Assembly: GCA_037576215.1 (NCBI GenBank)
Contig: JBANDB010000005.1
Location: 3,844,001-3,908,000, forward strand
Direction of reading: 5' to 3'
From: Armillaria gallica
Taxonomy: Eukaryota; Basidiomycota; Agaricomycetes; Agaricales; Physalacriaceae
DNA: 64,000 nt
Numbering within the stretch: the stretch's first letter is position 1; each line of letters opens with the position of its first letter. A program made the translations under genes and the position numbers. The notes under the pieces are model-generated. The model worked only from the letters and a program-made list of their open reading frames with translations, had not been told where the DNA came from and searched no databases. Shown here piece by piece: positions 1,616 to 63,222 of this stretch.

Positions 1616-4140
1616 TCAGATATTTAAATCAATCTTGTCTTGATCCAGGAGCAGTTTCACCATCTCAAGATTCCTTCTTTTTATGGCCAATACCAACAAT
1701 GGTGGATAGCACCACATCAGATTATCCCCTCTGTTCAAAAGCACTTTTGTAATATGCAAAAGGCCATAGTTAACAGCCAATTGAAGTGGAATGGGCTTCT
1801 TGATGGGCAACTCCATATAATTGACAAGCTTCTTAACTGTGCTGCAACATACTGAGTCAAGAAAATCAATGATTCTCTCTTCCATTGAATGTTGCACTTT
1901 GTTGGCATGGTATTCCCAGTAAATAAATGAGTAGCAAAGGAATGGGTACATTTTAAACAGCCAGTTGTCAGGGTAGGTTCGGCTGAACAACATATATGTC
2001 AGGGAGGTGCACATGATGGTCTCTTGGTAGTCAGGAAAGAATTTGTCTTTCTGAGATATAAAATACTCTTGTGTTGTATAATCTAAATAAGTTTTATCTT
2101 CAGCTTATTATGTAGTAAGGATTAGATCATGTGCACTTATGCACAAACCTCACTAGAGGCTCATTATGCTACTGTTCTGTCTGGTTTGTAATGACAACAA
2201 GTCCACCACAGACACTTCCCAAAAGGTCTTCACTGCATAAATTATCTGGGTCTAGGGTTGTTGTATCTGGTTCCACAGCCAATGCATGCCACAGTTCCAA
2301 CACAGTCAAAGAGTGCCTTGTAAATGCTATCCAGCCAAATATGCGATATGCAAGCTCTCTATCATGCTTGCCTTGACTATTGATCCTCTCCAGTGTCTTA
2401 TCATATGCACTTGGCATATTGTCAGGCAGTTTTCCAAGTGCAACTCAAAGTAGTTTGGGAGTGGTGGTCTGAGCAAGTGAGTCCATGTGTACCCTTGCTA
2501 GAAGGAACCTACAGATATTCAGTCAATAGTTTCAACATGTATGATGACATGAGTAACGCACATGCTATCAGCCTTTTCTGTTACTCCATTGAGTATTTCC
2601 TGTTGCAGATCATCTCGCCTCTTGATGAGGCTGGCAAGACAGCCACAAGAGAACTTGCTCATGATATATGAACTGATATCCTTGTTGTCAGCTTGGATAT
2701 CCAGCCTGATATCTGCCTTGAACAATGATCCAATCATGGCGATGTCTCTTGAGGTCACAAGGAGATGGATATTATCACCTAATGACCTCATTGTATTGAT
2801 AAGCCTTTCTTGCCCTCCATTATCATCACTGAACTCATCTAGTGCATCAAGTACAATGTAGACACAGTAGAATGATCTCAACTCTTGTGACAGTATTTTG
2901 GTAAGGACATTAAAGGAAGGCCATGTTCCATCACGATAACACGTGTTATAGAGTGATGTGATTGGGTCGGAGAGGCCATTGTCTTGAACCAGCTGTTTCA
3001 AGAGGCTACAAAGAAGGTTGGGTAAGGTTTGTGCAGCTGCAGATTGGTAATCACAGAAGATACAGAGGATGAGTGTCTTCCTCTCATGATCCAGCGACTG
3101 CAGATAGTCAATGATGATAGCGGCCAGGATGGTCTTTCCGACACCCGCTGAGGGGATGTGTCAGGGCCAAGAAAACAATGAAGCTATTTAGCGAAACGAC
3201 TCACGATTGCCGGGACACCACAGGCATGATGATGCTGCTGGACCATCCACCCACTTTTGGAATTCTTTGGACTCAAGAAACCAACCTCCAGTATCCCCCA
3301 CCTGCTGGCTCAGCTTCTCAGCTTGTACAGACTTGAAATTCAAGTCAGTAAGCCAAGCAATTATGCGTAAAAGTGTTTCATCTGTCTAACCATCAGTAAC
3401 AGGCTGGGGATGTTAATAAAAGGTGAGCACCATCCTGAGCCTTCTTCCCCTCACTTTGTATCTGTGATACACCATCCCTTATATGCGCCACTTGGCCATG
3501 GATTTCAAGGATGTTCGTGTCTACACGACCTGTGACTTGTTCGACCCGGTTGGTACTATCCAAAATGTCATCCATCTTTGTGTCAACGATAGCCAACATT
3601 TCATTGATTGCTTGAGATAAGGCGCTGTATTTTATGCTTAGCATTGACTTGCTGGAGCACAAAAAACACCTACAAATGATCATGCTGTTCAGCGACAATC
3701 ATCAAAGACTTGATCCTCTCAATCTTCTTCAAAGCATCCTCTACACTCTCCTTTTTGAACTTCCACAATACTCTGTGCGTCGCCTCTGTGACCTTCCCCA
3801 ACAGTTGGCTCTTCGCCTTGTTTATGCTAGGCTTGATTATCTTTTCCGGCGTACCATTCGGTGCAAGCTTGAACTCCTTTTTGAGATCCTTGAGTAACGC
3901 GGTAAGTTGCTCGACAGGACCGGACAGCCTTTGCATCGTCACCAGCCACGGATCATTTGGTCGTGCTGTCTTGGTGAATAGTTTCACCTCATTCAGCCAA
4001 ACCACCAGATCTGAAAGCTCCGTGGAAAGACTGTCGCGTTCTTTGGGTGCCTCTTTGACATCCTTGAGATATTTGTAGATAGTCCAGGAGACATCGACGA
4101 GGGCGACAATGGACGAAGCAATTCCTAGAGCCTCTGCCAT
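1..4140 (-). pseudogene. NLR-1: HeLo-like / NACHT / ankyrin receptor, decayed
   Basis: STAND-type receptor gene running off the left edge. Starts at ATG 4140 (MAEALGIASSIVALVDVS), a position shared with the start codons at 63222 and 25560. Exons inferred by alignment with its two paralogues: 4140-3674, 3624-3431, 3381-3205, 3147-2562, 2508-2141, 2082-1. Domains in order: helical HeLo-like N-terminal domain (fungal STAND/cell-death type), NACHT with Walker A GNPGVGKT spliced across the third intron and Walker B YIVLDALDEF, a winged-helix-like segment (ELAYRIFGWIAF), a linker, then ankyrin repeats. Lesions: in-frame TGA at 2445-2447, TAG at 2169-2171, TGA at 1616-1618, and a mutated donor (AT instead of GT) at 2140-2139. 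The ankyrin frame is otherwise open to position 1. By family it would be a cytosolic sensor of non-self leading to cell death; as read it is a pseudogene unless spliced unusually. Confidence 0.85.
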
Positions 4141-17084: not shown

Positions 17085-17275
17085 TAACTACGGAGGTTGG
17101 ATGTGGTTTCCCACCCGGAAAAGTATTACAGCATTGGCGCCTCGATTCACCCTCTATTTCTCAGATCCATCGAGAGTTCAAGTACTGAGTCTGCGCTTCA
17201 AACCTCAGTGGAGTTTGAAGCAACTGTACGCACAAGATTTCATAGTTCTTTGTACTATTCAAGTGCTCACTCCAA

Positions 17276-17778
17276 TCAAAAGGATATGGAGCATCCGTTT
17301 CTAAAAAAGAGATTAGCGAGCAACAGCGCCGGACAGATCGCGAGACATACAAGTGAGGGCTCGTCTTTCTTGGTACTCTATACCCTTTACACTCGACCAC
17401 TCCATGGTACAGCGACGTCCCATCCTCCTCGTAGCCGCCCTTGATAGGCCTCCTGCCGTCTGGGACGCGTCCTTCAGACGTGCGTACAAGTTCCATGGTA
17501 TCGGGATTGAACGGGAGCAGATCGAAACGCCCCTTGGGGTGTATCTCGCGGCCTCGGAAGGCGACTGAGCAAGGTCCGACCTTGCATGGATGAACCGATT
17601 TATGGAAGATAGCGGACCCGATGTAGATGGGCTTGTTATCCCAATCACGGCATGGGGGTGATCCAAGAAGATCCTGTCGTGGGAAGGGATAGGATCCATT
17701 CAATGGAAAACGGAAGCCAGAGTCGGGCTGAAGCATCTGGGGCGTCGCCTGGGGAATCCTGGGGGGTGTTCCGGGCAT
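17276..17778 (-). pseudogene. DM9 (DUF3421) domain protein, frameshifted at its end
   Basis: Exon 1 17778-17351, intron 17350-17301 (GTATGT..TTTTAG), exon 2 from 17300. The DM9 module is clear: DWDNKPIYIGSAIFHKSVHP, CSVAFRGREIHPKGRFDLLP, then GRVPDGRRPIKGGYEEDGTS and LYHGVVECKGYRVP. After splicing, exon 2 has one extra T compared with the intact copy at 59707-60275 (TTTTGATTGG against TTTGACTGG), giving a stop at 17276-17278 and losing the last strand (NYEILC). Reading through the unspliced intron stays open to 17161. Upstream (17780-17880) matches the region upstream of the intact copy, but the NLR expected next to it is absent and an R block starts near 18050. Confidence 0.75.
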
Positions 17779-43945: not shown

Positions 43946-45163
43946 TCATGCATTGTATGGATTATACTGCTGTGCCTGCATCTGTTGCTGCTGCTGCAAG
44001 AAGCTTGTGATCGTTTTCTGCTGCTCGACGAAAGCCTTTTCTAAAGCTGCAATCTGCTGCGACTCCTGTTGAGCTTGCAGTGCCTGCTGCTCAAATATAT
44101 CTTTCATCGAGGCCAGAATACCTCCTACATCTTCTTGTTTTACTGCAGTTTCATTCGCATTATTCCTCATGCTTGAGCGGACTCCATGCAATTCTCTCGT
44201 ACTGGAAGCGACCGTGTCTAGTCCACGCGCTTCATCTCGCTTTCTATCCATTGCTGAAAACACTCCTTGGAGTACGTCAAGGCCACTGGCCATGACTTCC
44301 TCTAAGGTATAGGGATTTGCAGGATCTCTGCTTGTTTTCCCCGCTGGTAGGTTCAACCGCTCCATCCTCAGCTTCATTGAGTTGTATAAACTGTCAGACA
44401 TTGGAGTAAGGAACTGATCCACCAGCTCTCTGTTTGAACATATGCCTTCACTCTTGAGAACCACTGCTAGGACTTGGAACTCTCGTTTGAATGACATATA
44501 ATCTGATCTTTCTTGGATCGGAGAGAGTCTGTATCGATGCACAAGTTGTTTCATTTCCTGCATAGTATCACGGTCGCCAGCCAGGGCGCCATCATAACTA
44601 CTCAGTATGTCCTTTTTAAACTCTGCGAATGTGCCGGTCACATAGTGCTCTAGAACTTTCCACTGCTTTTCCGTTTTGATGTCGGTGTAGCTAACAGCAT
44701 ACTTCTTCTTTTCTACATCAGTGACTACAGCACTTTTATCGAACAACTCCTCTAATCTCGAGAAGAATCTCTCTAGCTCTTCAGGATCTGTAGAGCTCTC
44801 AAATCTAGGTGCGGACTTTTCATTCGGTCCGGGCATAGATGGTGCCATGGTTGTATTACCACGGAATGGGGGTATGAAATATCTCAGGTTTGTATTAGGT
44901 TGTGAGCTCACAGTGGGAGCTCTGACGGTTCCTGTGGGACCAGGAATACCGGAGCTGCTCGAACACCTTCGATTAACGTGAACCGGAGCAGGTTCTTGCC
45001 ACGTTTGGATGTCTGCGTTGGATCTACCCTTCTTAGCTGTGGGTTCCGCTGCTGGATATGGGTATATCGGGGGAACACTTAATCCTCTCACTGCTTTCGC
45101 TGATCTAGTTTTCGGTTCTCTAGGCTGAGATGGTCCTTGTACTGGTGGTACGCAGATAGTCAA
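43946..45163 (-). CDS. Gag (capsid) region of the retrotransposon
   Basis: About 405 codons. The Ty3-type capsid core is recognisable by order and character (SSTDPEELERFFSRLEELFD, KQWKVLEHYVTGTFAEFKKD, LVHRYRLSPIQERSDYMSFK). The C-terminal part is a glutamine-rich coiled coil (QQALQAQQESQQIAALEKAF). The first codon at 45163 is TTG. The frame stays open upstream to a TAA near 45290 without an ATG, so the true start is unclear and may be the internal methionine in NTTMAPSMPGP. Confidence 0.75.
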   Translation of the reverse strand: MTICVPPVQGPSQPREPKTRSAKAVRGLSVPPIYPYPAAEPTAKKGRSNADIQTWQEPAPVHVNRRCSSSSGIPGPTGTVRAPTVSSQPNTNLRYFIPPFRGNTTMAPSMPGPNEKSAPRFESSTDPEELERFFSRLEELFDKSAVVTDVEKKKYAVSYTDIKTEKQWKVLEHYVTGTFAEFKKDILSSYDGALAGDRDTMQEMKQLVHRYRLSPIQERSDYMSFKREFQVLAVVLKSEGICSNRELVDQFLTPMSDSLYNSMKLRMERLNLPAGKTSRDPANPYTLEEVMASGLDVLQGVFSAMDRKRDEARGLDTVASSTRELHGVRSSMRNNANETAVKQEDVGGILASMKDIFEQQALQAQQESQQIAALEKAFVEQQKTITSFLQQQQQMQAQQYNPYNA

Positions 45164-45332
45164 TCTCTTTTGTGAGGTAGTACCCTCGATGTCGGAGTCG
45201 TTCTGGTTAGGAACTCGTCCAACGGATTTACTCCTTGGCGGAATTTTTGATAAGCTTAATGTAGCTTTGTTGTACCGAGTAGCGAGTTGTTAAAACAAAT
45301 CACAATACTATCGATGCACAATTGAAGACTCC

Positions 45333-47440: not shown

Positions 47441-50400
47441 TTCTAAGGTATAACTTAAGAATGCTCAGGGTCCTACCCACAAAATCGCTCAGAAAAGGAC
47501 GAATCCTCATTACCTCAGACTCGTAAAGGAAAAGGTGAACAATGATCCACCTCAATGGAAGACGGTGAAAAAGAGATTGCTGTGGACGCTTACTAAAACA
47601 AGCGTGGAGGATGATCTGAAGAAGATCGAACGTTTCAAGACCTTAGTCATGAGCGCTGTGCAACTTGATGCCATGTAAGTGACTCCTGCTTTCACCTCTC
47701 CAAGGCTAAGTTTAGTATACAGCAAATTATCTCATGCAATTAAGGACATGCTAGGTGATTCCAAGCGCACCACTGAGGAAACTCTAGGTATAATCAAGAA
47801 GCAACAGATGGGTATGTTCGCACCTAAATTTTACCGTCGGATGGTATACTGATGCAGGGACATGTTACAGATGAAGACACTGCAGAGGTAGTAAAGTGGC
47901 TCACCTCCAACACTGTGGACTACAATGATGTTCAGCTCGAGACACTGAAAAAATGTGTCAGCAATACTGAACAGTGGATCCTCAAGTCGCCGGAGTTTCT
48001 AACTTAGGTAGATGGTTCTGGGAAGTCTCGTACTTTGTGGTGTCAGGGAGGTCATGAGTCATTTTGGCCAGTCTCTTCATTGATTTCTTGAGGCCAATAC
48101 ATCTCTTCAGCTGGTGTTGGCAAGACCTTCCTGGCCTCAATCATTGTTAACCATTTGCATTCATTGCCAGTGGTCAAAGAGGGAAAGGCACTTGTCCTGA
48201 GTATCTTTTGTGATTACAAATCTACGGTTGAACAGACCATAGAGAATGTTCTTCATAGCCTCCTGAAACAGCTGGTTCAAGACTATGGCCTTTTTCCCTT
48301 GACTGAGACACTTCATGCTGACCAGAAAACAAAACGCCCCTCTCATGATGACCTTACCAAATGTCTGTCAGAAGTGCTGCAATATGTTTCTTCTCATGTC
48401 TACATTGTTCTTGATGCACTGGATGAGTTTGCTAATGACCATCAAGCACATCTCATCAATGTGATTCGGGGGTCATTGGGAGATAATATCCATCTTCTTG
48501 TGACATCAAGATCTGATATTGCACTAGATTCATTCTTTGAGGCAGATACCACATTGAATATTGAAGCTTCTGTTGATGATATCAAGTTATATATTGTAGA
48601 CAGATTCTCTCAAAGTTCACGTCTTGCCAGCCATATCATGGGGAAAGATGGCACAATTTTGCAAGAGGAAATACTTAGTAAAGTAACAGAAAAATCTTAT
48701 AGCATGTATGTTACTCATGCAGGCATGCTTGTTGCACCTATTGACTAACTCTCTGTAGGTTCCTTCTGGCAAGACTGCACATGGATTCACTTGCTCAGAC
48801 AGCAACTAGAAGAAAACTTAAAGATGCACTTGCTAAGCTGCCAGAGAATATAATGGGTGCATATGCTGAAATACTGGAGAGTCAGATCAATAGTCAAAAT
48901 GATGATGATAGAGTCCTTGCATTTTGCATATTTGGCTGGATAGCCTTTGCAAAGCGTTCTTTGACTGTGTTGGAACTGCAGCATGCATTGGCTGTGGATC
49001 TTGACTCAGATATGATGGCTTTCAATCCTGATAATCTCTACAGTGAAGACATTTTGGGAAGTGTCTGTGGTGGACTTGTCATTACTAGTGGTGTAGACCA
49101 GAGGGAATGGCCTAGGAATCCTATAGTGAGGTTTGCACGTAAGTAAAATGATCTGATTCTTTCTATTGAAGCTAAAGATGAATTTATTTAGATTATACAA
49201 CACAGGAGTATTTTATGTCTCAGAAAGACAATTTATTTCCTCAACTCCAAGAGACCATTGCACACACCTGCCTGACATATATGTTGTTCAACAACTTTAG
49301 GCATCAGTATTATGTTGATTATAATGATAAAATCAGGCTATACTATGATAATAGCAACAACAGCAATGACAACATCCAATCAATAAATACTCCTCACTTC
49401 CAATTTCCTTATAGAGGTCAATATGTTTCTGTTCAGGAGCACCATCCAGTTCTTCCCATCCATCTTTCCTATCCTTTCAATGGAAGTTATAGAATCTATG
49501 CATTTCTTCACTACTCACTTGATCACTGGATCTACCATGCCACAAAACTACAACACTCAATAGTAAATAAAATTATTGCATTTCTTGACTCTGCATGTCG
49601 CAGAAAGATCAAAAAGACTTATCATGCTGTAATATCTACCAAAGCACCCACCCCACTTCATTTGGCTGTGCAGTATAATCTGTTGCATATTACAGAAGTA
49701 CTTTTAAAACGAGGAGATGATCCATGCCAGTGTGAGACACCATTGTTGATCACAGCCAGCAAAAGTAGGAATTCTGAGATGGTAAAACTGCTTCTTGATC
49801 AAGACAAAATTGATCCAAACACCCAGGACTCTTTGAAACAACAGACACCCTTGTCTTATGCTGCAGAAAGGGGGTCTATGCAAATTGTAGAGATGTTATT
49901 GAAGTCAGATCAAGTCAATGTGAATTGCAAGGACTCCATAAGATGTACACCCTTGTCCTATGCTGTGAAAAGTGGGTCTACACAGATTGTAGAGATGTTA
50001 TTGCAGTTGGACCAGGTTGATGTGAATTGCAAGGACTCCACAGGGTGTACACCCTTGTTTTATGCTGCAAAAGAGGGGTTTATGGAGATTGTAGAAATGT
50101 TGTTGCAGTTAGATCAGGTAGATGTGGATTGCAAGGACTCTAGAGGACATACACCCTTGTCCTATGCTGCAGAAAGGGGATCTATGGAGATTGTAGAGAT
50201 GTTATTGAAATCAGATCAAGTGGATGTGAATTGCAAGGACTCTAGAGGACATACACCTTTGTCCTATGCTGTAGAAAATAAGTCTACACAGGTCGTAAAA
50301 ATGTTACTGCAGTTAGATCAGGTTGATGTAAATTGCAAGGACTTTACAGGATGTACACCCTTGTTCTATGCTGCAAAAGGAGGGTCTATAGAGATTGTAG

Positions 50401-53240
50401 AAATGTTATTACAGTTGGATCGAGTAGATGTGGATTATAAGAACTCTAGAAAATGTACACCCTTGTCTTATGCTGCAGAAATGGAGTCTGTGCAGATTGT
50501 AGAGATATTGTTGAAATCAGATCAAGTCAATGTAAATTGCAAGGACTCCACAGGATGTACACCCTTTTCCTATGCTGTGGAAAGGAAATATACACAGGTT
50601 GTAGAAATGTTGTTGCAGTTGGATCAGGTCAATGTGAATTGCAAGGACTCCACAGGACATACACCCTTGGCCTATGCTGTGAAAAGGAGGTCCACACAGG
50701 TTGTAGAGATGTTATTGAAGTCAGATCGTGTCAATGTGAATTGCAGGGACTCCAGAGGATGTACACCCTTATCCAATGCTGTAAAAAAAGAGTACACAGA
50801 GATTGTAGATAAGTTATTGTGGTTGGCTGAGGTTGATGTGAATTGCAAGGACTCCTCAGGACGCACACCCTTATCCTATGCTGCAGAAAGGGGATCTATT
50901 AAGATTGTAAAGATGTTATTAGAGTTGGATGAGGTTGATGTGGATTGCAAGGACTCCAGAGGACGTACACCCTTCTCCTATGCTGTGGAGAGCTGGTCTA
51001 TGGAGATTGTAATGAAATTATTACAGTTTGATCAGGTTGATGAGAATTGTAAGGACTTCACAGGGCATACACCCTTGTCCTATGCTACAGAAAAGGGGTC
51101 AACAGAGATTATAGAGATGTTATTGCAGTTGGATCAGGTTGATGTAGATTGCAAGGACTCCAGAGGACGTACACCCTTATCCTATGCTGCAGAAAGAGGC
51201 TCTACACAGATTGTAGAGATGTTATTGCAGTTGGATAAAGTTGATGTGAATTGCAAGGACTCTATAGGATGTACACCCTTATCTTATGCTGTGGCGAGCT
51301 CATCTACACAGGTTGTAAAGATGTTATTGCAGCTAGATCAGATTGATGTGGATTGCAAGGACTTTACAGGATGTACACCTCTATCCTATGCTGTAGAGGG
51401 CTGGTCTACACAGATTGTAGAGATATTATTGCAGTTAAATCAGGTTGATGTGGATTGCAAGGACTCCAGAGGACGTACACCCTTGTCCTATGCTGTAGAA
51501 AGGGGTTCTACACAGATTGTAAAGATATTATTGCAGTTAGATCAGATTGATGTGGATTCCAAGGACTCAAGAGGATGTACACCCTTATCCTATGCTTCAG
51601 AAAGGGGGTCTACAGAGATTGTAGAGATGTTATTGCAGTTTGATCAGGTTGATGTAGATTGCAAGGACTCTAGAGGATGTACACCCTTGTCCTATGCTGT
51701 GGGAGAGGGGTCTACAGAGATTGTAGAAATGTTATTGCAGTTCAATCAGGTAAATGTGAATTGCAAGGACTCCACAGGATGTACACCCTTGTGTTATGCT
51801 GCAAAGGGAGAGTCTAAGCAGATTGTTGAAATGTTATTGCAATTTGATCAGGTAGATGTTAATTGCAAGGACTCTGCAGGATGTACACCCTTGTCATATG
51901 CTGCAAAAGGGGGATCTGTGGATATTGTAGAGATATTATTGCAGTTGGATAAGGTTGATATGGATTGCAAGGACTCCAGAGGACATACACCCTTGTCTTA
52001 TGCTGCAGAAAGAGGCTCTACACAGATTGTAGATTACAGGACGTACACCTTTGTCCTATGCTGCAGAAAGGGGGTCTACAGAGATTGTAGAGATGTTGTT
52101 GCAGTCAGATCATGTCAATGTGGATTGCAAGGATTCTACAGGATGTACACCCTTATCCTATGCTGCAAAAGGAGGGTCAACACAGATTGTAGAAATATTA
52201 TTGCAGTTAGATAGGATCAATGTGAATTGCAAAGACTCCAGAGGACATACACCCTTGTCTTATGCTGTGGCAAGCAGGTCTACTCAGATTGTAGAGATGT
52301 TATTGCAGTTGGATCAGGTTGATGTAAATTGCCAGGACTTCAGAGAACATACACCCCTTATGATAGCAGTCATATCTGGTGATATATTGACAGTTGAAAT
52401 CTTACTGAAGCACACACAAGTTGCTAAGTTAGCTAGAGACAATGAGGATAACACTGCATACAGTCATGCTTATTGGCGGATCCATCGAGAACTAGACTCT
52501 TCCAACAGTGATGTGATCATTGTACTTCTTGAGAAATATGGATGCAGGCCCCAGATCTTAAATCAATATGAACCTACCTATAGGTTGGCAGAAGACCTAT
52601 CCAGTGATGAGCATTTAAGCTCAAGCTCTGGTTTCTGTATTCAATTGTGTTCATCCTCTACTCCTTTTCCAACAGAGGATCTTACTGGACCACCCCCATT
52701 CCATGATACCAATGGAGACCCCATCTATATTGGTTCTGCCATCTTTGGAAAATCCATCCATCCATGCAAGATTGAACCTCATCTAGCTGTCCCTTGCTCA
52801 GTCTCCTTTAGTGGCAGAAAAATAGCTCACATGGGGTGTTATGATCTGCTCCCCTTCAATCCTGATACAATGGAATTTGTACTCATGTCTCAAGGGCACT
52901 TCCCAGCTGGAAGGAGGCTGGTTAAAGGTGGCTACAATCAGGATGGGACACCACTCTACCATGGTGTAGCTACACTCAATGGGATAAAAATACCTGGAAG
53001 CATCAGTCATCGCTGGTATGTGTTGTGATTTGTCAGGTGCCATAGCTAACTGATTTCTTCTTCTTTAGGCCTGGATGCAACATAACCTGGGGCAACACTC
53101 TATACCTGGTTCACTCTGACTATGAAATCTTGTGTGTACAAGTGATTTTTCACATTACTTTGAATATTATTTACATAACTATATCTCCAGGTGCTGGAAA
53201 TAATAATGGAAGTGTACAAAATGAACAATATAGTAAATAG
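47441..53240 (+). pseudogene. NLR-2: partial HeLo-like / NACHT / about 25 ankyrin repeats / DM9
   Basis: Begins mid-domain (VKEKVNNDPPQWKTVKK). Exons by alignment: to 47674, 47723-47811, 47871-48053, 48111-48705, 48759-49138, 49192-53015, 53069-53240. Walker A core GVGKT follows the intron ending 48110, and Walker B is YIVLDALDEF. The winged-helix-like part reads AFCIFGWIAFAKRSLTVLEL. Ankyrin flank repeats (PTPLHLAVQYNLLHITEVLL; TPLMIAVISGDILTVEILL) enclose the expanded array. The C-terminal DM9 domain (GDPIYIGSAIFGKSIHPCKI; GRRLVKGGYNQDGTPLYHGV) ends in a spliced last exon with DYEILC. Lesions: no start, TAG at 48005-48007, donor AT instead of GT at 48054, and a net 44-bp loss near 52034 that shifts frame inside the array. 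Most of the long frame (49215 to about 52034) is intact. Confidence 0.85.
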
Positions 53241-54825
53241 ATTTTGTTCAATGCAAATCATCTCAGCCAAACAGTATAACATAAACAGTGATGAACAGGT
53301 CAACCTGGGCATGAAAGAGGTGTGGTAATTCAGCCTGGATCATAGCAAGTGCCCACACTCACCAGACTCACTGTCAGGATTGGTAAGTATTACTCAGCTA
53401 TGTTTCTTTTCTCTGCACAAAATTTCTAGCAGTTTCTTTCAAAAGTAGTATATAAAGCTATGTGTAGAGCAGGACCCCTTGTGTATTTGCCTTCCAAAGG
53501 TTCCCTGTTGCTTGATAATTCACCCCTTAATCCAACAAGAGGAGCTTGCTGTGGTGCTGGTGAGGGCTCCCACCTACAGAGAATGCAGGTCACTGGAAAA
53601 TTTTCCTTAACATGTGCACAGAGATGTTGAAGTAAGAGAACATATTCACACCAAGCCAGACTATACAGTTATATCAGCTGTGAAACCATTCCACAGCCTA
53701 ATCCACCTCACTGTGCAAGCCAGATGTATGTCAAATTGTCAATGAATGATCAGCAACAGCACATGATCAAAGTAAACTGTTGATGGTCAAGATTCTAATG
53801 CTATCATCTGGCATTATTGATGACATTGACAAATCTGTAGGGTTGCCAAAAACATCACCCTAATTGAGAGTGCATAGTAAGCAACCCTGATTTGTGAATG
53901 TAATCACTGGAAAGATAAGGAATAACTGGGGTAAAGCCAGAAGCTCTAAGGGTTCAATGAGCGACTAGTAAGAGAACAGCTTTTAGCTGTCAGTCAATAT
54001 AAACAAAGCATCAATACATTCCAGGTGTTCATTGAAATATTGAGATGATGGATATCTTGAGTGACTTCAAACTTGGATCATCTCAACATATTATTATGTG
54101 TAACAATTGATACACAGTACAACATGTGACTTGCAGTAATATGGCTGGCAATGTATACCTGCAGAGTATTAGCTGAAGAAGCTGATAAAAGGGGTTAGCT
54201 TACAGCAGAGACAATCTGAGAGATTTGAATGATGACAATAGATATGACAATAACTCTGTTTTCTTATGCAGAACATGTCCCTGGATTTGGTGCAAGTAAT
54301 TTGTATGAGTAAGACAAAGACATCTAGGCAAACCTGAGGCAGACTGTGAAACCATGAAAGACCGCAGTCATTTGTATTATACACATCCCTCCCACCCTTT
54401 GTTTGTATGCCAGTTTGAGTCCAATAGAATCCACCCAAGGACATTCAAACATGACTGAGTGAACATTTACAGAAGTGGGTCCACAAGCCTGCTATCTTCT
54501 CCTTCTGTGATGAACATGCTTGAGAATGCAAGCATGCCACATTAATTGGAGATTGGATCACTTGAAAGTTGATAGACTATAGCAGAAGTGAGCATGGCTG
54601 AAAGTAGAACAGAGTGAAAGGTATAAACCATCCCAAGCATGTTCTCATCCCTCCGCTTAGCTTTGCTCATGTCACCAGCATCTGGGTCCCAGATGTGATC
54701 TGAGGTCAGACTGGCATCCTCTTGTTGTATAGTGCAGTAGGAATGGCAGGCATAGTGGTTGGGGTATCAATGCACTTCATCAGGTGAAAGTAGAACCGTA
54801 TTGCAAGGAGGGCACAGTCAGATTA
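48110..54825. other. CpG-depleted tract covering NLR-2 and its 3' flank
   Basis: CG dinucleotides are almost absent: none in 53101-53460 and none in 54001-54300. They become common again abruptly at about 54826 (AGCCGGCG). A similar tract covers positions 1 to about 3000 (NLR-1). From 53241 to 54825 no gene or repeat is recognised. This pattern fits long-term cytosine methylation with deamination. Confidence 0.8.
49850..52370 (+). repeat. Coding tandem array of about 25 ankyrin units (102 bp each)
   Basis: Units have the form TPLSYAAERGSTQIVEMLLQ LDQVDVNCKDSTGC, 34 residues long. Residues after YA and within the GSTQ/GSME positions vary most; TPL, IV.MLL and CKD are nearly fixed. One unit is truncated near 52034, where ATTGTAG joins ATTACAGGACGTACACC and 44 bp net are missing. 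The unrelated-looking frames in other phases (for example 50453-50812) are shadows of this array. Confidence 0.95.
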
Positions 54826-55539
54826 GCCGGCGTAATTTTATAGTCCTGTCGAGACCAAGTGAATCATATTATATTTAGACAAGGTAATATATTACATTGG
54901 ATTATTTAAAACTCGCAAAGGAAATTGTAGCGCGCTGGTCTAAGAAATCGTGGTTGGTGTCCAGTCTCATGGCACAGAGAGAGGACAGCGAACTTGACGA
55001 GTGGCGGGTAGGTATGCTGTTAGGAAAAAGGACATCGTAGTTTTCTCGCCGTCCATATCATGGTGCAACTCGTCGCTGTGACTTGTATTCAGAATGATCA
55101 GACGAGTCCATGGTGAATAACAACGTGGCGGGAGGCAGAGAATCATTTGATGGTGAGGTCGCCTCCAGATGTTTCAGTAATGCAGATCCAGTGAATGGAG
55201 GAAGCCAAGGATGACAATTGTCGCCGTCACTACCTCATGTTGTGCTGGTGATGGTCAACAACAGCATCCCATCGAGAGAGATCGCTGGCCAACACCCCCT
55301 GGAGCAATGATGTCGTCTAGCTTCTCGATGGCACTGAATGTCCTTTATGAACTGTAGATGGTAACACTAGATATCAATGAGAATTCAGCAAAGGATGTTC
55401 TCCGTGCACGGCTCTCTGACTGTACGGCCACCCTAGTCTCACGACCTGTTCCTCTCTTCGCCTACAAAATGCCAAAATCTATGCCTTGCTCCACCTTCTG
55501 CTGAATATATGACACCCTAACGCGAGCACTAGCGTAGTT
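54826..55539. other. Intergenic, nothing recognised
   Basis: Composition returns to the window norm. No coding frame with a known domain was seen before the R block begins. Confidence 0.35.
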
Positions 55540-58500
55540 CACGTTGAGAGACTGCCGCTGTTGGAGGTGCAAATCGAGGAATCCCAGTCCCAAGAGATCG
55601 AAGAAAACCATCAGAAGGGAAAGGGCTTCATCGTGCGTGCGTATCTTCAGTCAAGCAAAGACAAGCAGACGAGAAACGCTGCTGGTTGATCGATGGGCGA
55701 GACCTATCGTCAATGGTGATGGAAGACGAAAAAGGAGCTTTGGTCCCGGACCTTTCGAGTTGATTATCCTTTCTTACCGAAAACGCCAAGGGAGTTAAGA
55801 CTGTCATGAGGTCGAGAGATCTATCTGGCGAGATGTCAGTATGTCAGTAAATAATCGGGAGGTAAAGAACCAACCTACGTGAAGCAGTGTCATAAGCCAT
55901 GGTTACATTTCCTGTCGCGTTCATTCCGCACTAATTGATGTTCTCGACGTTGCAAGCGTCGTTCTTCAGTGCGGCGGCTTCCATGTATAGAGCCGAACAA
56001 TTTTGCATTAGCACAAAGTTCTCAGCAGCAGTCGGCAGTGGAAATTGCTAAGGACATGGGGGAAGCGAAGGATGAAGGACCGGCGAGCTGAGTTCGACGC
56101 TCTTGTAGTGCTGGTGAGGGTTCACCACCTGCGATACGTGAAAGGAGGATAGAGATACACAAGTGAGAGATTGGTGCTTCTTGATGATATCCGTTATGGA
56201 CTACAGAGAAAAGCGATATCAGAGCATGGTCAACAGAACGGGGATCATGAACATACTAGAGTCATAGGACAATGGTCCTCCCAAGCTCCACCCCTTTCCC
56301 CCCCCAGTTCTGCCTTCCAAAGTTGTCTTAGTGACCCGTCCTCTGGACCCCGATGGTCGTCCAAGTTGAAGTGTGAAAAGCAGGACCGTTGGCTGCTAGT
56401 TGGAAGGAGCCGAATCCTGGGTGAAGCGGAATGGGCTACGCGACTGGACCTTTTGTTCAGTCCAGAGTACGCTCGCTGGCGTTACATTGCGGTAAGAGCT
56501 GCTAGGCAGGAATAAGCGAGTATGAAACAGGGCTGTCGACCCAGAGGACGATGGCTTTCGGCCGGGAATTGGAAGGGAAATAGCCCTGCATGCATCCATA
56601 ATAATATCAGGCGTAGCGGCGGTTCCAAACCAAAACGACCAGGCCATGTCGGGGCACAACGAATACAGTAGATGGGGGCGGAAATGTTCCCTTCTCTCTA
56701 CCAGAGGCGAAATCAAGAGGAAACGAGCGAGTTCCTTCCTGGGAAGGTCAGGACAGACCATAGCATCTCCGGTATCGAAACCAACTTTAGACTAATCGTA
56801 ATGGCGTCTGAGTGTATGTAGACTCGGTGGAAGACGAGCGGGGTAAGGAATGATGTTGCAACGCTAGATCAGAACCTCTGATGTGCATACAGAAGTAGAG
56901 AGGAAGAAATGATGGTACGGCCTGCTTGTATACGCTATGCTAAGCAGACGAAGAGGATAGCGGAGTATTGGATTTTCTGAGGGTCAGTATTCCTGCTTTG
57001 GAGTCAAGCCGTACGTTCCAGCCACCGCCGCCTAGAAGGAAGTACGTGTTCTCGGGTAGTGAGGATTTTGTGCATTGCGGTTCCAGGGAGTGTAGGTGAA
57101 AGTGAACTGGGAAAGAAGCAGAGAAGGAAGATGAAGAGACGGGCACGACGGAATGGCGCTGAGGGCTCCCTGGACGACATTGCCGACAAACAAGCTCTCC
57201 TTGGGTTCGTTGCATCACCAAAACTGCAGATGACAGTCGCGTCAATACGAATTAGGCGTTCGAGATGACGACTGTAGACATACCCTGAAGACGTCCGTAA
57301 GACACTGGATGACGGCGACGCGACCCTGGCAGCACTCGCTCCCTTCACTGACTGCTGTGATTAGCATGAGGGTGATGTTCATAGCCGTGGTACGCTAAGA
57401 AAGTGACACCTTTTATGCGCTCTGCCGCGTCTTTTGCTTTCGGATTCTTGTTGCATGTAGGCCAGCCAGGTCATGAGCGTAAAACACCGGAAGCTATAAA
57501 CGTACAACGGAGGGAGGCGTTGATATGAAGACGATCGAAGGCTGGTGCAGTTACTAGTAGGAGGCCAGTCCTCCATGGCGCGTGAATTAAGAGACGGATG
57601 ATTGACTTGGGCGTAAAGGACAAGACACGCGTGAAAAGAGGATGGCGAAGGTTCAGTGAACAACGGTCAAGGACACGTCCCTTCTCCTCCTACCCACACC
57701 CAATCCTACGCCTCCCTTCTTCCCATTGCGCTGATGCCGACTCGGGGTCACTCGGGAGAGGCTTTGTGATGTCTTCAGAGGAGGTGAACAGACGAGGGTA
57801 TTGTTGATGTAGTCCCCGATGACGGTGGGATATGGAAGGGAGGCTGTGATCGGAGTTTCGGATCGTCCTCTCCACCCGACTGCGAGCATGCGCGCACGCA
57901 CAATGCCTTGACACATTCCTCGTCTGGACGCGTACACAAACAACAGCTCTTCCTCCAAGCCTCGCCTGATTTCTTGGCGCCGGCGAGTCCCCGACTTTGC
58001 ACCTCCAACGGTGGCGGCTCCTCAACCTGAACGACACTCAGACTTGTTCCGACGCGTCAACATGCAGGGGATGGCCTAGGAGAAGGCGAGGAACAGAATG
58101 TGGTATCTTGCAGGCGTAGAGAGGACTGACCGTACTATCGGTGTCCTTGAGTACGTCGGCCATTCTCATCTCGCTGAACTCCTTTATTGACATTATCGGT
58201 GTTCACAGACAGCTGCCGTATTCTACACCGCCGAAACATTCCAAGACAAAAATCTCACATTGAATACTACTGCATTTAATGTTCCCACACATGAAATTCA
58301 GCTTCCCAAGCAAACAACGACGAGCGATGTCCAACGACACTCCGTTCTCTCTCCGTACAACAGATGCTTCAAGCTTCGACCACCACCATGCCTGGCTCTA
58401 TATCACCTCTATTTCACAAGTTCCACACCCTTCCTAGCACAAACCTACCAAAGCTTATGACCATTCTAAGCTTTCCGCCCAGCCGACTTCGACAGGCGAA

Positions 58501-59210
58501 GTGCTCACCAACCCCAAGGTTGTGAATTCTGTAACGGCCACAAGGATATCCTTGTCGGTACCGCGTGTCACAGCGAATTGACATAGGAATGCGGACGTCT
58601 TGCAAAGCTGCCTTACCAGACCATATGTTATCGTGAGTTCCCTTTACCGAAAGTGACATTCAGAATTTACTGATTCACCTGCAGAAGCTCCACACGCAAA
58701 CTGCCCCTTCTCTCTGTTCCACGACATAAACATCCGCGTCAACCTGTCAACATTTATATTTATCCCCTACTTTGTCGAGGCTATGATTCTCATTGCACCA
58801 AGATCTGGAGCCCGGATGACAGCGACATAAGTGAAACTAAACGTCTTCCCACTAGACTAGCCTGTCCTCCACCTGCACCATATCTCTCTTCCTCCCACTC
58901 CATCCCCTCTTCCCGCTGAAGCGCCTTTCTAATCTAGGACCCGCTATCCTTAGATATAGCACCAACCAAGGATTCTCCGTGAAATGTCGACGAGAGAGAA
59001 GGGAGCTTCTGTAAGCGTGGGCGTCTTCGGATGAAGACAGCTTTCGCTGGGTGAACAAACCAGGAATATTCGTGTGTCGTGTACGCTATATGCGGTCCGG
59101 CTCGTTTCCCAGTCATTTCCTTCGCCTGTCTTGTCTTCCTTCGCGCTATTTGGAGTACCCGCCAACGATACATGTAGGCCGTCAACATACGCAAACCGAC
59201 CCCAATGCGT
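55540..59210 (+). repeat. R-family block, copy D (direct with 18.05-21.5 kb)
   Basis: Colinear with copy B over most of its length, with small indels. Contains the intron-like GTACGTCGGCCATTCTCATC..CACAG segment (58152-58208) followed by ACAGCTGCCGTATTCTACAC, and CEFCNGHKDILV-like reading near 58525, parallel to CELCNGHKHILV near 20825. Copies B and D lack about 100 bp found in copies A and C around 7715-7815. All frames broken; ancestor unknown. Confidence 0.6.
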
Positions 59211-59254
59211 CCTACGGTAATGGCTACGAAGCTCCTATGGTTCCGTTTCTCGTC

Positions 59255-59455
59255 CTGAAAAGTAACATACGTTCAGAAATCCAACGAAACGACTCAGATA
59301 GTGGGCAATTTCCCACATCACTATATGATCCAACGGACCCAAAAACGATAGAAGAACATAACAGGGCTCAAGCTCTTTTTCGCCGTGCTCGTGCCCGTGC
59401 AAGGGAGGATGAAGCCTCCGGTCGCGTTTCGAAGAGGGCTAGATTGGTTGAGTGA
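59255..59455 (+). CDS. Hypothetical exon with basic C-terminus
   Basis: End of an open frame whose first half lies in the R block. The unique second half reads YDPTDPKTIEEHNRAQALFR followed by an arginine-rich tail (RARAREDEASGRVSKRARL) and TGA. It looks coding by composition and could be the last exon of a gene, possibly nuclear from its basic tail. No domain recognised and no upstream exon confirmed. Confidence 0.25.
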   Translation: MKSNIRSEIQRNDSDSGQFPTSLYDPTDPKTIEEHNRAQALFRRARARAREDEASGRVSKRARLVE

Positions 59456-59706
59456 GGCATTTCGTATCTGGTAAACTCTTTCTCTAAAAGACTTGCTCCA
59501 CTTTTGATCTTAACGATTTCAACTCCTCATTATTATCCATCGTATGTTGTACCATATGACTGAAATACCATGCTTTGCAATGAAATAGATTCATTCTTAT
59601 GTCGAATTACACTAATTGTAGTACAAAATACTTTCAGATCAGTCTTCGCTCTTTCTATAATCAACTTATACACTTCCATCATTACTTCCAGCATCTGATG
59701 CTATGA

Positions 59707-60275
59707 TTAAGTAATATTTAAAGCAATCCGAAGAAACGACTGTACGCACAAGATTTCATAGTTCTTCGTCATCAAGTGCTCACTCCAGTCAAATGATATA
59801 ATACATCCGTTTCTAAGGACGAAGACGAAATCAGCCAACGACAGCACCTGACATATCGCAACACATACAAGTGAGGGCTCGTCTTTCCCGGTACTCTGTA
59901 CCCTTTATACTCGGCCACCCCATGGTACAACGACATCCCATCCTCCTCATAGCCCCCTTTGATCGGCCTCCTACCATCTGGGATGCGTCCCTCAGACGTG
60001 CGTACGAGTTCCATCGTCTCAGGATTGAACGGGAGCAGATCGAAACGCCCCTTTGAGTGTATCTCGCGGCCGCGGAAGGCGACTGAGCAAGGCAGGTGAG
60101 GTGCTACCTTGCACGGATGGACAGATTTGTCAAAGATGGCGGAACCGATGTAGACGGGCTTGTTACCCCAATCACGGCATGGGGGTGGTCCGAGAAGGTC
60201 CTGTGGTGGGAAGGGAGAGGATCCATCCAGCGGAAAGCGGAAGCCAGAGCTGGGGGGTTGCTCAGGCTGAGGCAT
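59707..60275 (-). CDS. DM9 (DUF3421) domain protein, stand-alone
   Basis: Two exons, 170 codons plus stop: 60275-59869, intron 59868-59813 (56 bp, GTATGT..CTTAG), 59812-59707. Starts MPQPEQPPSSGFRFPLDG. DM9 repeats: GNKPVYIGSAIFDKSVHPCK, CSVAFRGREIHSKGRFDLLP, ELVRTSEGRIPDGRRPIKGG, YEEDGMSLYHGVAEYKGYRV, then after splicing NGCIISFDWSEHLMTKNYEI and LC. Frame is intact across the joint. DM9 domains bind sugars in characterised oyster proteins and occur in natterin-like proteins; here a lectin-like ligand-binding role is an inference. It lies 232 bp downstream of NLR-3 on the same strand. The same domain is fused to NLR-2. Confidence 0.85.
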
Positions 60276-60506
60276 CGGTTAAGTAGGGGAATCCGGGGCT
60301 TGTTCTTTCTCCCATCATCACGGAGGATGCCAGCTTAGTATCATAGGCCGATTTCTGCATGACTGCAACTTTGGGCTTCGACTTCGACCACGTTGTAGAT
60401 CAAGCCTTCTGCCTGGTACGACCGATCAAGAAATGAGATAGAAAACCGAGACGTGTTATATTCCACATGAAACAATACTACCTAGATCGCAAGACCTGGT
60501 CAGTCA

Positions 60507-63222
60507 TTAGGTACGTAGGCGATTGCCAGGCGTGACGGTAAGATAGATAGGTTGGTAATTATCCATCTCAGCACTGTACCCATATTTCTCAAAAAGCGCA
60601 ATCATCTCAGGTCCTGAGTGACAAGCATGAGTGTACGCAGCTTTACCGTCGTCGTCTCTCACCAAAACCTCAATTCCAGGGTGCTTCAGCAAGGCTTCGG
60701 CAATCGGTATGATCCCATGACTGACCGCCACCATAAGGGGTGTCCGACCATTGCTGCCCTTGCTATTCACGTCAACCCGACTCGACCGCAATAGCATCTC
60801 CACGATATGCGTATGCTCCCGCCGTTCTGCAGCATACAACAAGGGTGTCTGTTGCGATGAGGGTGAACGGGCATTTGGGTTAACGTTATCTCGGTCCAGA
60901 AGTAGCTTCACCATCTTCAGATCTCCCCTTTGTACGGCTGTCAGCAACAATGGATCCTTGCACTCGCAATTTCCACGCAAGAGGAGAACGTCCATGATGT
61001 GCAACAGCCCATAATCCATAGCCAACTGAATTGGCATGGGTGCCTCGTTGGATATTGCTCTTCGATGAAAAATGTTCACAATCCTCCTGCGGTTCGCCGA
61101 GTCAACACCTCCAGTGAGAAATGCAATGATTTCATCTTCCATTGAATGTTCCACTGCTCCGCTAGCATGATACCCCCAGTGAACAGAGGAGTAGTGTAGG
61201 AACGGATGCTTTTCGGCCAGACCACGAAGCGGAAGGTCTTCGAGCGATGACATATACGACAGGCAGGTGCGCGTGATAGCCTCTTGGATGCGAGGAAAGA
61301 GTTCGGCGCATCGACGGTCATGAAAATACTCTCGGGTCGTATGATCTAGAGAAACCCATCATCAGCTTGTATAGAAAGGATAATCAAATCTTCCGCACTT
61401 ACGCATGAACTTCATTATAGCTCCGCTCGACCGAAAATCTTTGAACTCACTATAGGCGTCGTCCTTGACGACAAGCCCGGCACAGATATCCCCCAAAAAC
61501 TCCTCATCATCGAGGTCTACGGTCGTCATCCTCGATTCCACAGCCAATGCGTACCGCAATTCCAACACTGCCAAAGGACGCCTAGCAAAGGCTATCCACC
61601 CAAGTATACGATACGCAAGTTCCTTGCGATCTTTGCTTTGACAATTAACCCTCTCCAGCGCGTTGTCATACGCCTCCCATATATTGCTTGGCAGCTTTCT
61701 GAGTGCATCTCGACGTATTTTTCGACTTTTTGTCTCAGCAAGTGACGCCATATGCATGCGCGCCAGAAGGAATCTATAGTGAGTCGGTCAATAAGCACAA
61801 CACGCGTGACTGCAAGATGAACGCACACGCCGCCAGCCCTTGTTGTTACTCCGCTGAGTATCTCCCGACGCAGATAGTCTCGTCCCTTAATGTGGCGGGC
61901 AAGACGACCGGAAGAGAGTCTGCTCATGATATACGTCTTGATATCCTCATCGGCAGCTCGGTTATCTAACCTGGTATCGGTCCTGAATAGTGATGCCATC
62001 GTGGGTAGGTCTCTCGACATCACAAGAAGACGAGTTTTGCTGCCAGCATCCGGAGCGCATTAATCAGCTTCTCTTGACCTCCGTCATTTTCTGGAAATTC
62101 GTCCAGGGCATCAAGAATAATGTAGACGCGGTTGAATGATTGCAACTCTTCTACAAGGACTTCGATAAGATCGTCGAAGAAAAGGGGGGGTGTTATTGTC
62201 ATAGAAGAATGTGATCGAATCAGAGAGACCATGCACTTGGACTCGCTGTTTCAAGAAGCTGCGGAGAATGTTCTCCACGGTCTGTGTGTTCGCAGATTGG
62301 TGATCGCAGAAGACACTCAGCACAAGAGTCTTCTGTTGGACAAGTGTCTTCTCGCAAATCGGCGACTGCAAAGCATTGAGAATAATGGAGGCCAAAACGG
62401 ACTTTCCAACGCCCGCTAGAGATACTATGTCAGCTTTCAAGAAAACATTGAAAATATTTGACTCACGACCGCCAGGACACCACAAAGTACGAGACTCCGT
62501 AGAACCATCCTTCCAACATTTATACTCTGGCGACTCAAGAAGCCATTCTCCGGTGTTGCCAACACGCTCTCTCAGCTTCTCCTGTTGAACGGCGGTGGGA
62601 TCCGAAGGGGTCAGCCATCCCGCCACTTTCTCAGGTTTGTCGTCTGCTAGGTACATGTGCATCAGCGTTCAATACGGCGATAGACCTTGACTATGGACGC
62701 ACCTATCAAGACAACATCCACCGTGCCCTTGACATCTGCGATCATTGCATGAGATAATGTTCTGTATACCAAATTTAGCCTCCGAGAGGTGAACGCAGGA
62801 GTCGCTTACAGGTGGTCTACCTGCACAGCGCTCATAATCAAGGTCTTGAGACGCTCGATCTTCTTCAGATCCTCCTCCACACTCGTTTTGGTAAGCGTCC
62901 ACATCAACCTCTTTTTCACTATCTTCCACTGAGGTGGGGAAACGCACAGCTTTTTATCAAGCTCCTCGAGTAACTTCATAAGCTCTTTGAAAACACTGTC
63001 CTCGTCCAGCTGCTTCAAGGTCTTCAGCCACTGGCCATCTTCGGTCGATCGCGGTATAAGCTCGTCTACGGCAGATAGGTAGATCCTCAGATACTTTAGC
63101 TCCTTTAAGAACTGGGAAATTTCATTGGGGGCGTTGTATACGTCCTTGACATAGTTGATAAGCGTAAGGATGTTTGTAATGAAGGCAGCGACAGACGAAG
63201 CAACTCCCACAGCGTCTGCCAT
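60507..63222 (-). pseudogene. NLR-3: HeLo-like / NACHT / short ankyrin receptor, two frameshifts
   Basis: Start ATG 63222 (MADAVGVASSVAAFITNILT). Exons: 63222-62810, 62761-62703, 62646-62467, 62415-61827, 61773-61403, 61345-60507, all with GT..AG introns of 48-57 bp. Walker A GGPGVGKS, Walker B YIILDALDEF, winged-helix-like YRILGWIAFARRPLAVLEL. The ankyrin part has only about five repeats (MPIQLAMDYGLLHIMDVLLL to TPLMVAVSHGIIPIAEALLK) and ends GNRLRT. It matches the flanking repeats of NLR-2 with the expanded core missing. Two apparent frameshifts interrupt exon 4: one at a run of seven G (62185-62191) and one near 62038. Otherwise well preserved with normal CpG content. If those are assembly errors the gene would be intact. 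Confidence 0.8.

What the first reader, a model, noticed from the sequence alone, without database searches (positions are those of the whole stretch)
47441..60275. DM9 domain fused to an ankyrin NLR in one locus and a separate neighbour gene in another
NLR-2 ends in a DM9/DUF3421 domain after its ankyrin array. NLR-3 stops after its ankyrin domain and the same DM9 module, with its own start, follows 232 bp downstream on the same strand. The joining stretch is conserved (SSSGF..PFPTEDLTGPPP in the fusion, PSSGFRFPL..PFPPQDLLGPPP in the split form). Fused and split forms of the same pair suggest that the two parts act together, with DM9 as a candidate ligand-binding or effector module of a fungal NLR. 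I do not know of a described DM9-linked fungal NLR.
Basis: partly seen in the sequence, partly recalled or inferred. Interest (0 to 1): 0.88.

Follow-up and report, generated by a model that had tools for sequence, protein, structure and literature searches.

The report
DM9 lectin-fold domain on fungal NLRs
In honey fungi (Armillaria), a small protein module that in oysters binds mannose sugars has been joined to the end of an immune-receptor-like protein, while sister copies of the module sit as separate genes in the same receptor cluster.

Summary
NLR-2 carries DM9 after its ankyrin array; a DM9 gene starts 231 bp after the NLR-3 stop. Neither NLR is intact as assembled: NLR-2 lacks most of its N-terminal domain, has an in-frame TAG and a frame break; NLR-3 has two NACHT frameshifts. 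Yet five full-length NACHT-ankyrin-DM9 proteins are annotated in four named Armillaria species. Here 5 of 14 DM9 on the NLR-rich contig lie just downstream of a same-strand NLR (0.47 expected). The fused DM9 form one clade (100/99); the DM9 beside NLR-3 is in a sister clade of solo genes, so these are not fused and split forms of one pair. The 'joining stretch' is an ordinary part of the DM9 module. The predicted fold matches the oyster mannose lectin CGL1; the NLR-3 DM9 keeps the main site residues and is constrained. Best reading: one integration, seen only in Armillaria, of a lectin-fold recognition module into a fungal NLR. Ligand binding is inferred. My searches found no earlier description.

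The parts
47523..47674 (+). NLR-2: remaining 3' part of the N-terminal-domain exon; most of its first part is missing
   Evidence: tblastn of P0081 residues 99-149; donor GTAAGT read
47849..48712 (+). NLR-2: NACHT/NPHP3_N region, with in-frame TAG at 48005-48007
48745..49146 (+). NLR-2: winged-helix (GPIID_WHD) exon
   Evidence: 27.5 bits against cut-off 27
49182..52214 (+). NLR-2: pre-ankyrin region and long ankyrin array; frame break near 52030
52621..53016 (+). NLR-2: fused DM9 module, first exon (Pfam match 52705-53013); critical site residues replaced
53070..53135 (+). NLR-2: DM9 module, last strands after a small intron
   Evidence: tblastn 53073-53135, acceptor read
62809..63222 (-). 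NLR-3: N-terminal exon, weak SesA-like match below cut-off
61826..62668 (-). NLR-3: NACHT/NPHP3_N region with two frameshifts (about 62190 and 62045)
60507..61787 (-). NLR-3: winged helix, pre-ankyrin and short ankyrin domain, ending at stop 60507-60509
   Evidence: winged helix 23.3 bits, below cut-off 27
60276..60383 (-). Leader of the NLR-3-adjacent DM9 gene, shared with solo DM9 copies
   Evidence: blastn homology starts at 60383 in L010 and L011, at 60347 or 60332 in L013, L018, L019, L020
59868..60275 (-). DM9 gene beside NLR-3, first exon; 95% identical to A. ostoyae ARMOST_10314; constrained
59746..59811 (-). DM9 gene beside NLR-3, last strands after a small intron
17230..17727 (-). 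Third DM9 in the window: solo relative of the NLR-3-adjacent gene

Best explanation
These are members of a clustered, fast-turning-over family of fungal NACHT-ankyrin NLRs in an Armillaria-like genome, into which a DM9 (CGL1-like, N-type lectin fold) module was integrated, probably once. Shown: the architecture, the single fused DM9 clade, the clustering with solo DM9 paralogues, and the predicted fold. Inferred: the protein is a STAND switch in which the ankyrin solenoid and the DM9 tethered behind it by a flexible linker form the sensing end. Ligand binding by DM9, most likely a mannose-type glycan or a glycosylated or DM9-binding foreign protein, would release NACHT to oligomerise and let the N-terminal domain trigger cell death or alarm. 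The solo DM9 beside NLR-3 is a separate, constrained gene of the sister clade. Whether it works with NLR-3 is open; NLR-3 itself is broken as assembled.
For: Domain hits. Five full-length annotated NACHT-ANK-DM9 proteins in A. novae-zelandiae, ostoyae, borealis (two) and gallica, plus P0014 of A. luteobubalina, which starts in an ankyrin-like tail. Downstream placement 5 of 14, expected 0.47. Fused DM9 one clade 100/99. AlphaFold2 model of P0006 pLDDT 92.6, best PDB matches CGL1 with TM 0.72 (query) and 0.81 (target). Equivalents of CGL1 Asp22 and Lys43, essential for mannose binding (PMC5712788 passages), kept as D/E in 8 of 9 and K in 6 of 9 fused rows. The full-length model puts a low-confidence linker (residues 848-877) between the ankyrin solenoid and DM9. 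[quoted passage not shown]
Against: No ligand or expression data. Lys43's equivalent is Ser in 3 of 9 fused rows, including the annotated A. borealis P0005, and Glu in 3 of 13 solo-clade rows; the Glu59 equivalent is kept in only 3 of the 5 fused rows that reach it; Asp22 is Glu in nearly all solo fungal rows. High-mannose glycans are not expected in the cytosol (recalled). NACHT and DM9 histories partly disagree: holding NLR-2 and P0001 DM9 together is rejected (p-AU 5.8e-5) although their NACHT regions group at 100/100. The four fused copies of this genome that I read (NLR-2, L015, L016, L017) are damaged as assembled. SesA-like matches are below cut-off in 3 of 7 proteins scanned and absent in the other 4. 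The full-length model is poor overall (pLDDT 65.4, pTM 0.45).
Confidence: 0.5

Rival explanations
1. Integrated decoy: the fused DM9 is a bait copied from the fungus's own solo DM9 proteins, which are what a parasite or rival targets; binding or modification of the bait fires the NLR. Sugar binding by the fused copy is not needed.
For: Solo paralogues exist in the same genome and cluster. The mannose-site Lys is lost in 3 of 9 fused rows but kept in 46 of 46 rows of the ancestral and other-genus group. Extra C-terminal domains are proposed as integrated decoys in Sordariales NLRs (PMC12258605 passages).
Against: I know of no foreign protein that targets fungal DM9 (recalled, not searched). 6 of 9 fused rows keep the Lys and 8 of 9 an acid at the Asp22 place, which a pure bait would not need.
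Confidence: 0.25
2. The split DM9 is an effector or partner acting in trans with NLR-3, as HET-S does with NWD2.
For: Adjacent same-strand genes. The NLR-3 DM9 is under purifying selection, dN/dS 0.15-0.20 in 5 pairs.
Against: The two adjacent DM9 are in different subclades, and ARMOST_17807 has Glu at the Lys43 place (PGE). The closest A. ostoyae relative of the NLR-3 DM9, P0006, is on a contig with no NLR in my list. About 8% chance for one such neighbour in this cluster. NLR-3 is frameshifted while the DM9 is constrained, which suggests independence.
Confidence: 0.15
3. Neutral domain capture: an NLR stop was lost next to a DM9 gene in a cluster that duplicates and decays quickly; the DM9 tail has no function.
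For: Damaged copies; NLRs with and without DM9 are intermixed in the NACHT tree.
Against: Full-length fusions persist in four named species, with many invariant DM9 residues among the five.
Confidence: 0.12

Closest known systems
Fungal NACHT-ankyrin NLRs (STAND proteins)
   Same: NPHP3_N/NACHT, winged helix, C-terminal ankyrin repeats, clustered and variable
   Different: A DM9 domain follows the ankyrin repeats. DM9 and DUF3421 have 0 occurrences in the main text of the 2014 and 2022 surveys PMC4986451 and PMC9815663 (term searches)
Oyster CGL1 / CgDM9CP-1 (N-type, DM9 mannose lectin)
   Same: Predicted fold (TM 0.72/0.81) and equivalents of Asp22 (as Glu) and Lys43 in the NLR-3 DM9
   Different: Fungal; about 20% identity; fused to an NLR in one clade; sugar binding untested
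NLRs with integrated domains (SPRY, zinc finger, PKinase in Sordariales)
   Same: Extra binding-type domain at the C-terminus, SPRY always together with ankyrin repeats (PMC12258605 passages)
   Different: DM9 has 0 occurrences in that main text (its supplementary table of 185 domains was not available to me); here basidiomycete, with close solo paralogues in the same cluster
het-B (BH protein) of Podospora anserina
   Same: C-terminal lectin-fold domain in a recognition protein beside an adjacent partner gene (PMC10890737 passages)
   Different: HET domain, not NACHT; a fruit-body-lectin fold, not DM9; the partner is PII-like

Membership tests
Fungal NACHT-ankyrin NLR | STAND NTPase (NACHT/NPHP3_N) | tested here: met
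   NPHP3_N 81.3 bits (NLR-2) and 62 bits (NLR-3), cut-off 24.8
Fungal NACHT-ankyrin NLR | C-terminal superstructure-forming repeats | tested here: met
   Ank_2 654 and 141 bits
Fungal NACHT-ankyrin NLR | N-terminal effector domain | tested here: inconclusive
   SesA 16.8 bits in NLR-3, 16.0 in P0001, 26.0 in P0094, cut-off 26.3; none in P0002, P0004, P0076, P0080
Fungal NACHT-ankyrin NLR | Intact coding sequence (window copies) | tested here: not met
   TAG, missing N-terminal part and frame break in NLR-2; two frameshifts in NLR-3; assembly error not excluded
DM9 / N-type lectin | DM9 domain above Pfam cut-off | tested here: met
   72.5 and 83.9 bits, cut-off 26.2
DM9 / N-type lectin | CGL1 fold | tested here: met
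   Model of P0006, 95% identical to the NLR-3 DM9; Foldseek TM 0.72/0.81
DM9 / N-type lectin | Asp22 and Lys43 equivalents, NLR-3 DM9 | tested here: met
   Glu and Lys; Glu for Asp is conservative, not identical; mapping by alignment and residue count
DM9 / N-type lectin | Asp22 and Lys43 equivalents, NLR-2 DM9 | tested here: not met
   Asn and Ser
DM9 / N-type lectin | Mannose binding | not testable with these tools
   needs purified protein
NLR with integrated decoy | Non-canonical domain fused to an NLR, with solo paralogue in the genome | tested here: met
NLR with integrated decoy | The domain's solo form is a target of a foreign effector | not testable with these tools
   no interaction data
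HET-S/NWD2-type two-gene system | Adjacent effector gene sharing an amyloid motif with the NLR N-terminus | not tested
   adjacency seen; amyloid motifs not searched

The most novel reading that the evidence does not exclude
A single integration gave Armillaria a class of NLRs with a built-in lectin-fold sensor: the first fungal NLRs that read glycans, or glycan-bearing foreign surfaces, directly through a DM9 domain. The solo DM9 sister genes in the same cluster serve as a reservoir or as trans-acting partners.
Probability: 0.22. Interest if true: 0.82.

Novelty: new variant of a known kind. Interest (0 to 1): 0.58.

Why it matters
Ligands of fungal NLRs are largely unknown (recalled). A lectin fold with a solved relative at the sensing end, with known site residues, gives a testable ligand hypothesis. 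The solo and fused paralogues in one cluster would make a fungal test of the integrated-domain idea worked out in plants.

Tried and rejected
Joining NLR-3 and its DM9 by an unseen intron: rejected by reading the sequence by eye, since the only phase-0 donor that I saw shortly before the stop is a poor GTCACG, and because relatives end at the same stop. The 'joining stretch' as a sign of fission: rejected. Direction of change (fission or fusion): unresolved. The DM9 tree puts fused and solo clades as sisters, while the NACHT tree puts fused NLRs in two groups, the NLR-3 type lying with the first of them (94/94) (it warns of long branches). C-terminal exchange between NLR paralogues would explain the clash for P0001 and NLR-2, but NLR-2 and L035 agree in both trees.

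Rows dropped: the DM9 tree used 41 rows. Left out were own loci L014, L019, L020, L021 and L023, and of the 62 hits the unnamed ones but P0010 and the named P0021, P0031 and P0067. The NLR census used 23 of 25 matches (two weak ones on C16 and C12 dropped), and the placement tests used the 22 on C5. The permutation included three DM9 found only because I looked beside NLRs; one search repeats it without them. The L040 fragment is in no tree. One search keeps only rows over 250 residues; one search was capped at the 7994 candidates sharing most words.

Full report
What is there. Six-frame reading and Pfam place NPHP3_N/NACHT, winged-helix, ankyrin and DM9 (PF11901) modules in order on the plus strand at 47.5-53.1 kb (NLR-2). 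On the minus strand at 63.2-60.5 kb lies the same kind of NLR without DM9 (NLR-3), and a separate DM9 gene starts 231 bp further on. DM9 matches in 17 places in the 86-Mb genome at E<=0.001, 12 of them on contig C5 between 2.79 and 3.90 Mb; one of these is a third, solo DM9 in the window. A search with the NLR-3 winged-helix exon gives 25 matches, 22 of them on C5 between 2.30 and 3.91 Mb (the tool calls its counts lower bounds). The region is thus a 1.6-Mb NLR cluster with DM9 in it.

State of the two NLRs. NLR-2 has no good match to the first 98 residues of its relative P0081 in 7.6 kb upstream (weak matches of P0001 from residue 69 and P0076 from residue 50 reach about 47430), a TAG at 48005-48007 where P0081 has Trp, and a frame break in the ankyrin array near 52030. 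NLR-3 has two frameshifts that bracket the Walker-B stretch. As assembled neither makes a full receptor; I cannot exclude assembly error. The other fused copies in this genome that I read (L015, L016, L017) are also damaged.

The fusion is real elsewhere. A search with the DM9 part of an NLR of about 1,000 residues returned 5 proteins among 111 candidates, all of them NACHT-ankyrin-DM9 proteins of 1027-1085 residues from Armillaria: novae-zelandiae, ostoyae, borealis (two) and gallica. A sixth, P0014 of A. luteobubalina, starts in what looks like the ankyrin tail and runs into DM9. In a profile search with these NLRs 5 of 50 hits at E<=1e-30 carry PF11901, the same five; only the 7994 best candidates were scored. 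Short DM9 proteins are wider: 62 of 81 candidates at E<=0.001, named genera being Armillaria, Desarmillaria, Guyanagaster, Coniophora, Asterophora, Mycena, Tetrapyrgos, Leucoagaricus, Cyathus, Lactifluus and Lentinula, many others unnamed. DM9 is hence an older solo gene family, and the NLR fusion was seen only in Armillaria in this database.

Association beyond chance. Of the 14 DM9 on C5 found without reference to NLRs, 5 lie within 5 kb downstream of an NLR winged-helix exon on the same strand, against 0.47 expected under random placement inside the cluster; 6 of 100,000 random sets reached 5. Looking beside each NLR added three decayed copies (L033, L035, L040), so at least 8 of the 23 NLR loci kept have a DM9 behind them: 7 of fused type (L040 by BLAST alone) and 1 separate. 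Flanks fetched were limited, and one NLR's 3' end was not read. In named relatives 12 of 17 short DM9 proteins (P0014 among them) share a contig, judged by species and contig length, with an NLR of my list. For the split pair alone, the chance that one of 10 solo-type DM9 falls as close behind an NLR is about 8%, so this single case is weak. ARMOST_17806, an NLR-3-type NLR, and ARMOST_17807, a solo-clade DM9, have consecutive locus tags in A. ostoyae; distance and strand there are unknown to me.

Fused and split DM9 differ. In a 41-row tree the 10 fused DM9 form one clade (100/99), the NLR-3-adjacent DM9 lies in a clade of 18 solo-type rows (100/99), and these two with P0010 are set apart (98/95) from the solo genes of Guyanagaster, A. 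mellea and locus L009 and from the other genera. DNA comparison agrees: the NLR-3 DM9 is 77-82% identical to ten solo loci (L010 to L014, L018 to L020, L022, L023) and 71% to L009, but 65-70% to the fused ones, apart from one 65-bp piece of L016 at 77%. Among own-genome copies dN/dS is 0.15-0.20 between the NLR-3 DM9 and five solos, but 0.46-1.29 among those five (10 pairs) (pairwise NG86, 81-126 codons). I read this as a constrained gene with a burst of relaxed daughter copies.

The 'joining stretch'. In the model of P0006 the residues around it are well predicted (block means 89-93) and include strand 14-16. It belongs to the DM9 module. In the weaker full-length model of P0001 the linker proper is the low-confidence stretch 848-877.

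What DM9 probably does. The P0006 model (mean pLDDT 92.6) has CGL1 of oyster as its best solved match, with TM 0.72 and 0.81, followed by the nematode protein MFP2. In CGL1 Asp22, Lys43 and Glu59 hold mannose; in CgDM9CP-1 loss of Asp22 or Lys43 abolishes binding (passages of PMC4932603 and PMC5712788). Equivalent positions, by alignment and my residue count, are Glu/Lys/Glu in the NLR-3 DM9 and in P0001, Asp/Lys/Glu in P0004, and Asn/Ser/Leu in NLR-2. Over groups (P0014 and P0010 not counted): the Asp22 place is D or E in 8 of 9 fused rows, E in 12 of 13 solo-clade rows (1 gap) and E in 45 of 46 other rows (1 gap). The Lys43 place is K in 6 of 9, in 8 of 13 (3 Glu, 2 gaps) and in 46 of 46. 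The Glu59 place is E in 3 of 9 (4 gaps), 3 of 13 (3 gaps) and 22 of 46 (21 gaps). So the fused clade mostly keeps the two main residues but loses them in some members, and so does part of the solo clade, ARMOST_17807 included. Sugar binding is an inference. The N-terminal region has sub-threshold SesA matches in 3 of 7 proteins and none in 4, so the cell-death output is inferred from the family.

History of the fusion. One fused DM9 clade suggests one integration, but fused NLRs fall into two groups of the NACHT tree, and holding the DM9 of NLR-2 and P0001 together is rejected (p-AU 5.8e-5; with L035 5.4e-4) although their NACHT regions group. NLR-2 and L035 agree in both trees (99/96). Exchange of C-terminal ends between paralogues, plus losses, is the simplest account. 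Fission against fusion remains open.

Literature. Searches for DM9 with NACHT, ankyrin and fungi (0 papers), DM9 with Armillaria (0), DUF3421 with fung (7, by listing none on fungal NLRs), Armillaria with NACHT and ankyrin (2; the Armillaria paper PMC10269595 has no DM9 in its main text), and a mixed search (5,475 papers at 3 of 6 terms, 20 listed) gave no DM9-linked fungal NLR in what I saw. Main texts of PMC4986451, PMC9815663 and PMC12258605 hold no DM9 or DUF3421 (term searches). Supplements were not available, and most subscription papers are not in the library. DM9 proteins in fungi as such were noted before, in a figure legend of PMC5712788.

Verdict. A real new variant of a known kind: fungal NLRs with a C-terminal lectin-fold DM9, seen only in Armillaria and this genome. 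The window itself shows decayed examples. The 'fused and split forms of one pair' argument does not hold.

Noticed in passing
window 8-4140 (-): A further NLR of the same family with a long ankyrin array running to the left edge of the window; its 3' end was not read.
   Followed up: partly
window 49640-52500 (+): NLR-2 ankyrin array of many similar repeats with a 102-bp period (seen), reminding of the highly similar repeat arrays of hypervariable fungal NLRs, while the annotated fusions in other species are only 1027-1085 residues long.
   Followed up: no
window 17230-17727 (-): Solo DM9, nearly identical to a copy at C5:3.533 Mb (dS 0.034), a sign of recent duplication.
   Followed up: partly
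window 43946-45289 (-): 447-codon ORF that looks like a retroelement gag protein (by eye, no search).
   Followed up: no
G000 C5:2773937-2775138 (+): Truncated NLR-3-type copy: N-terminus, part of NACHT and the ankyrin tail, directly before another NLR.
   Followed up: no
L016 2054-2437: A stretch of about 380 bp interrupts the DM9 of this fused NLR; intron or insertion not decided.
   Followed up: no
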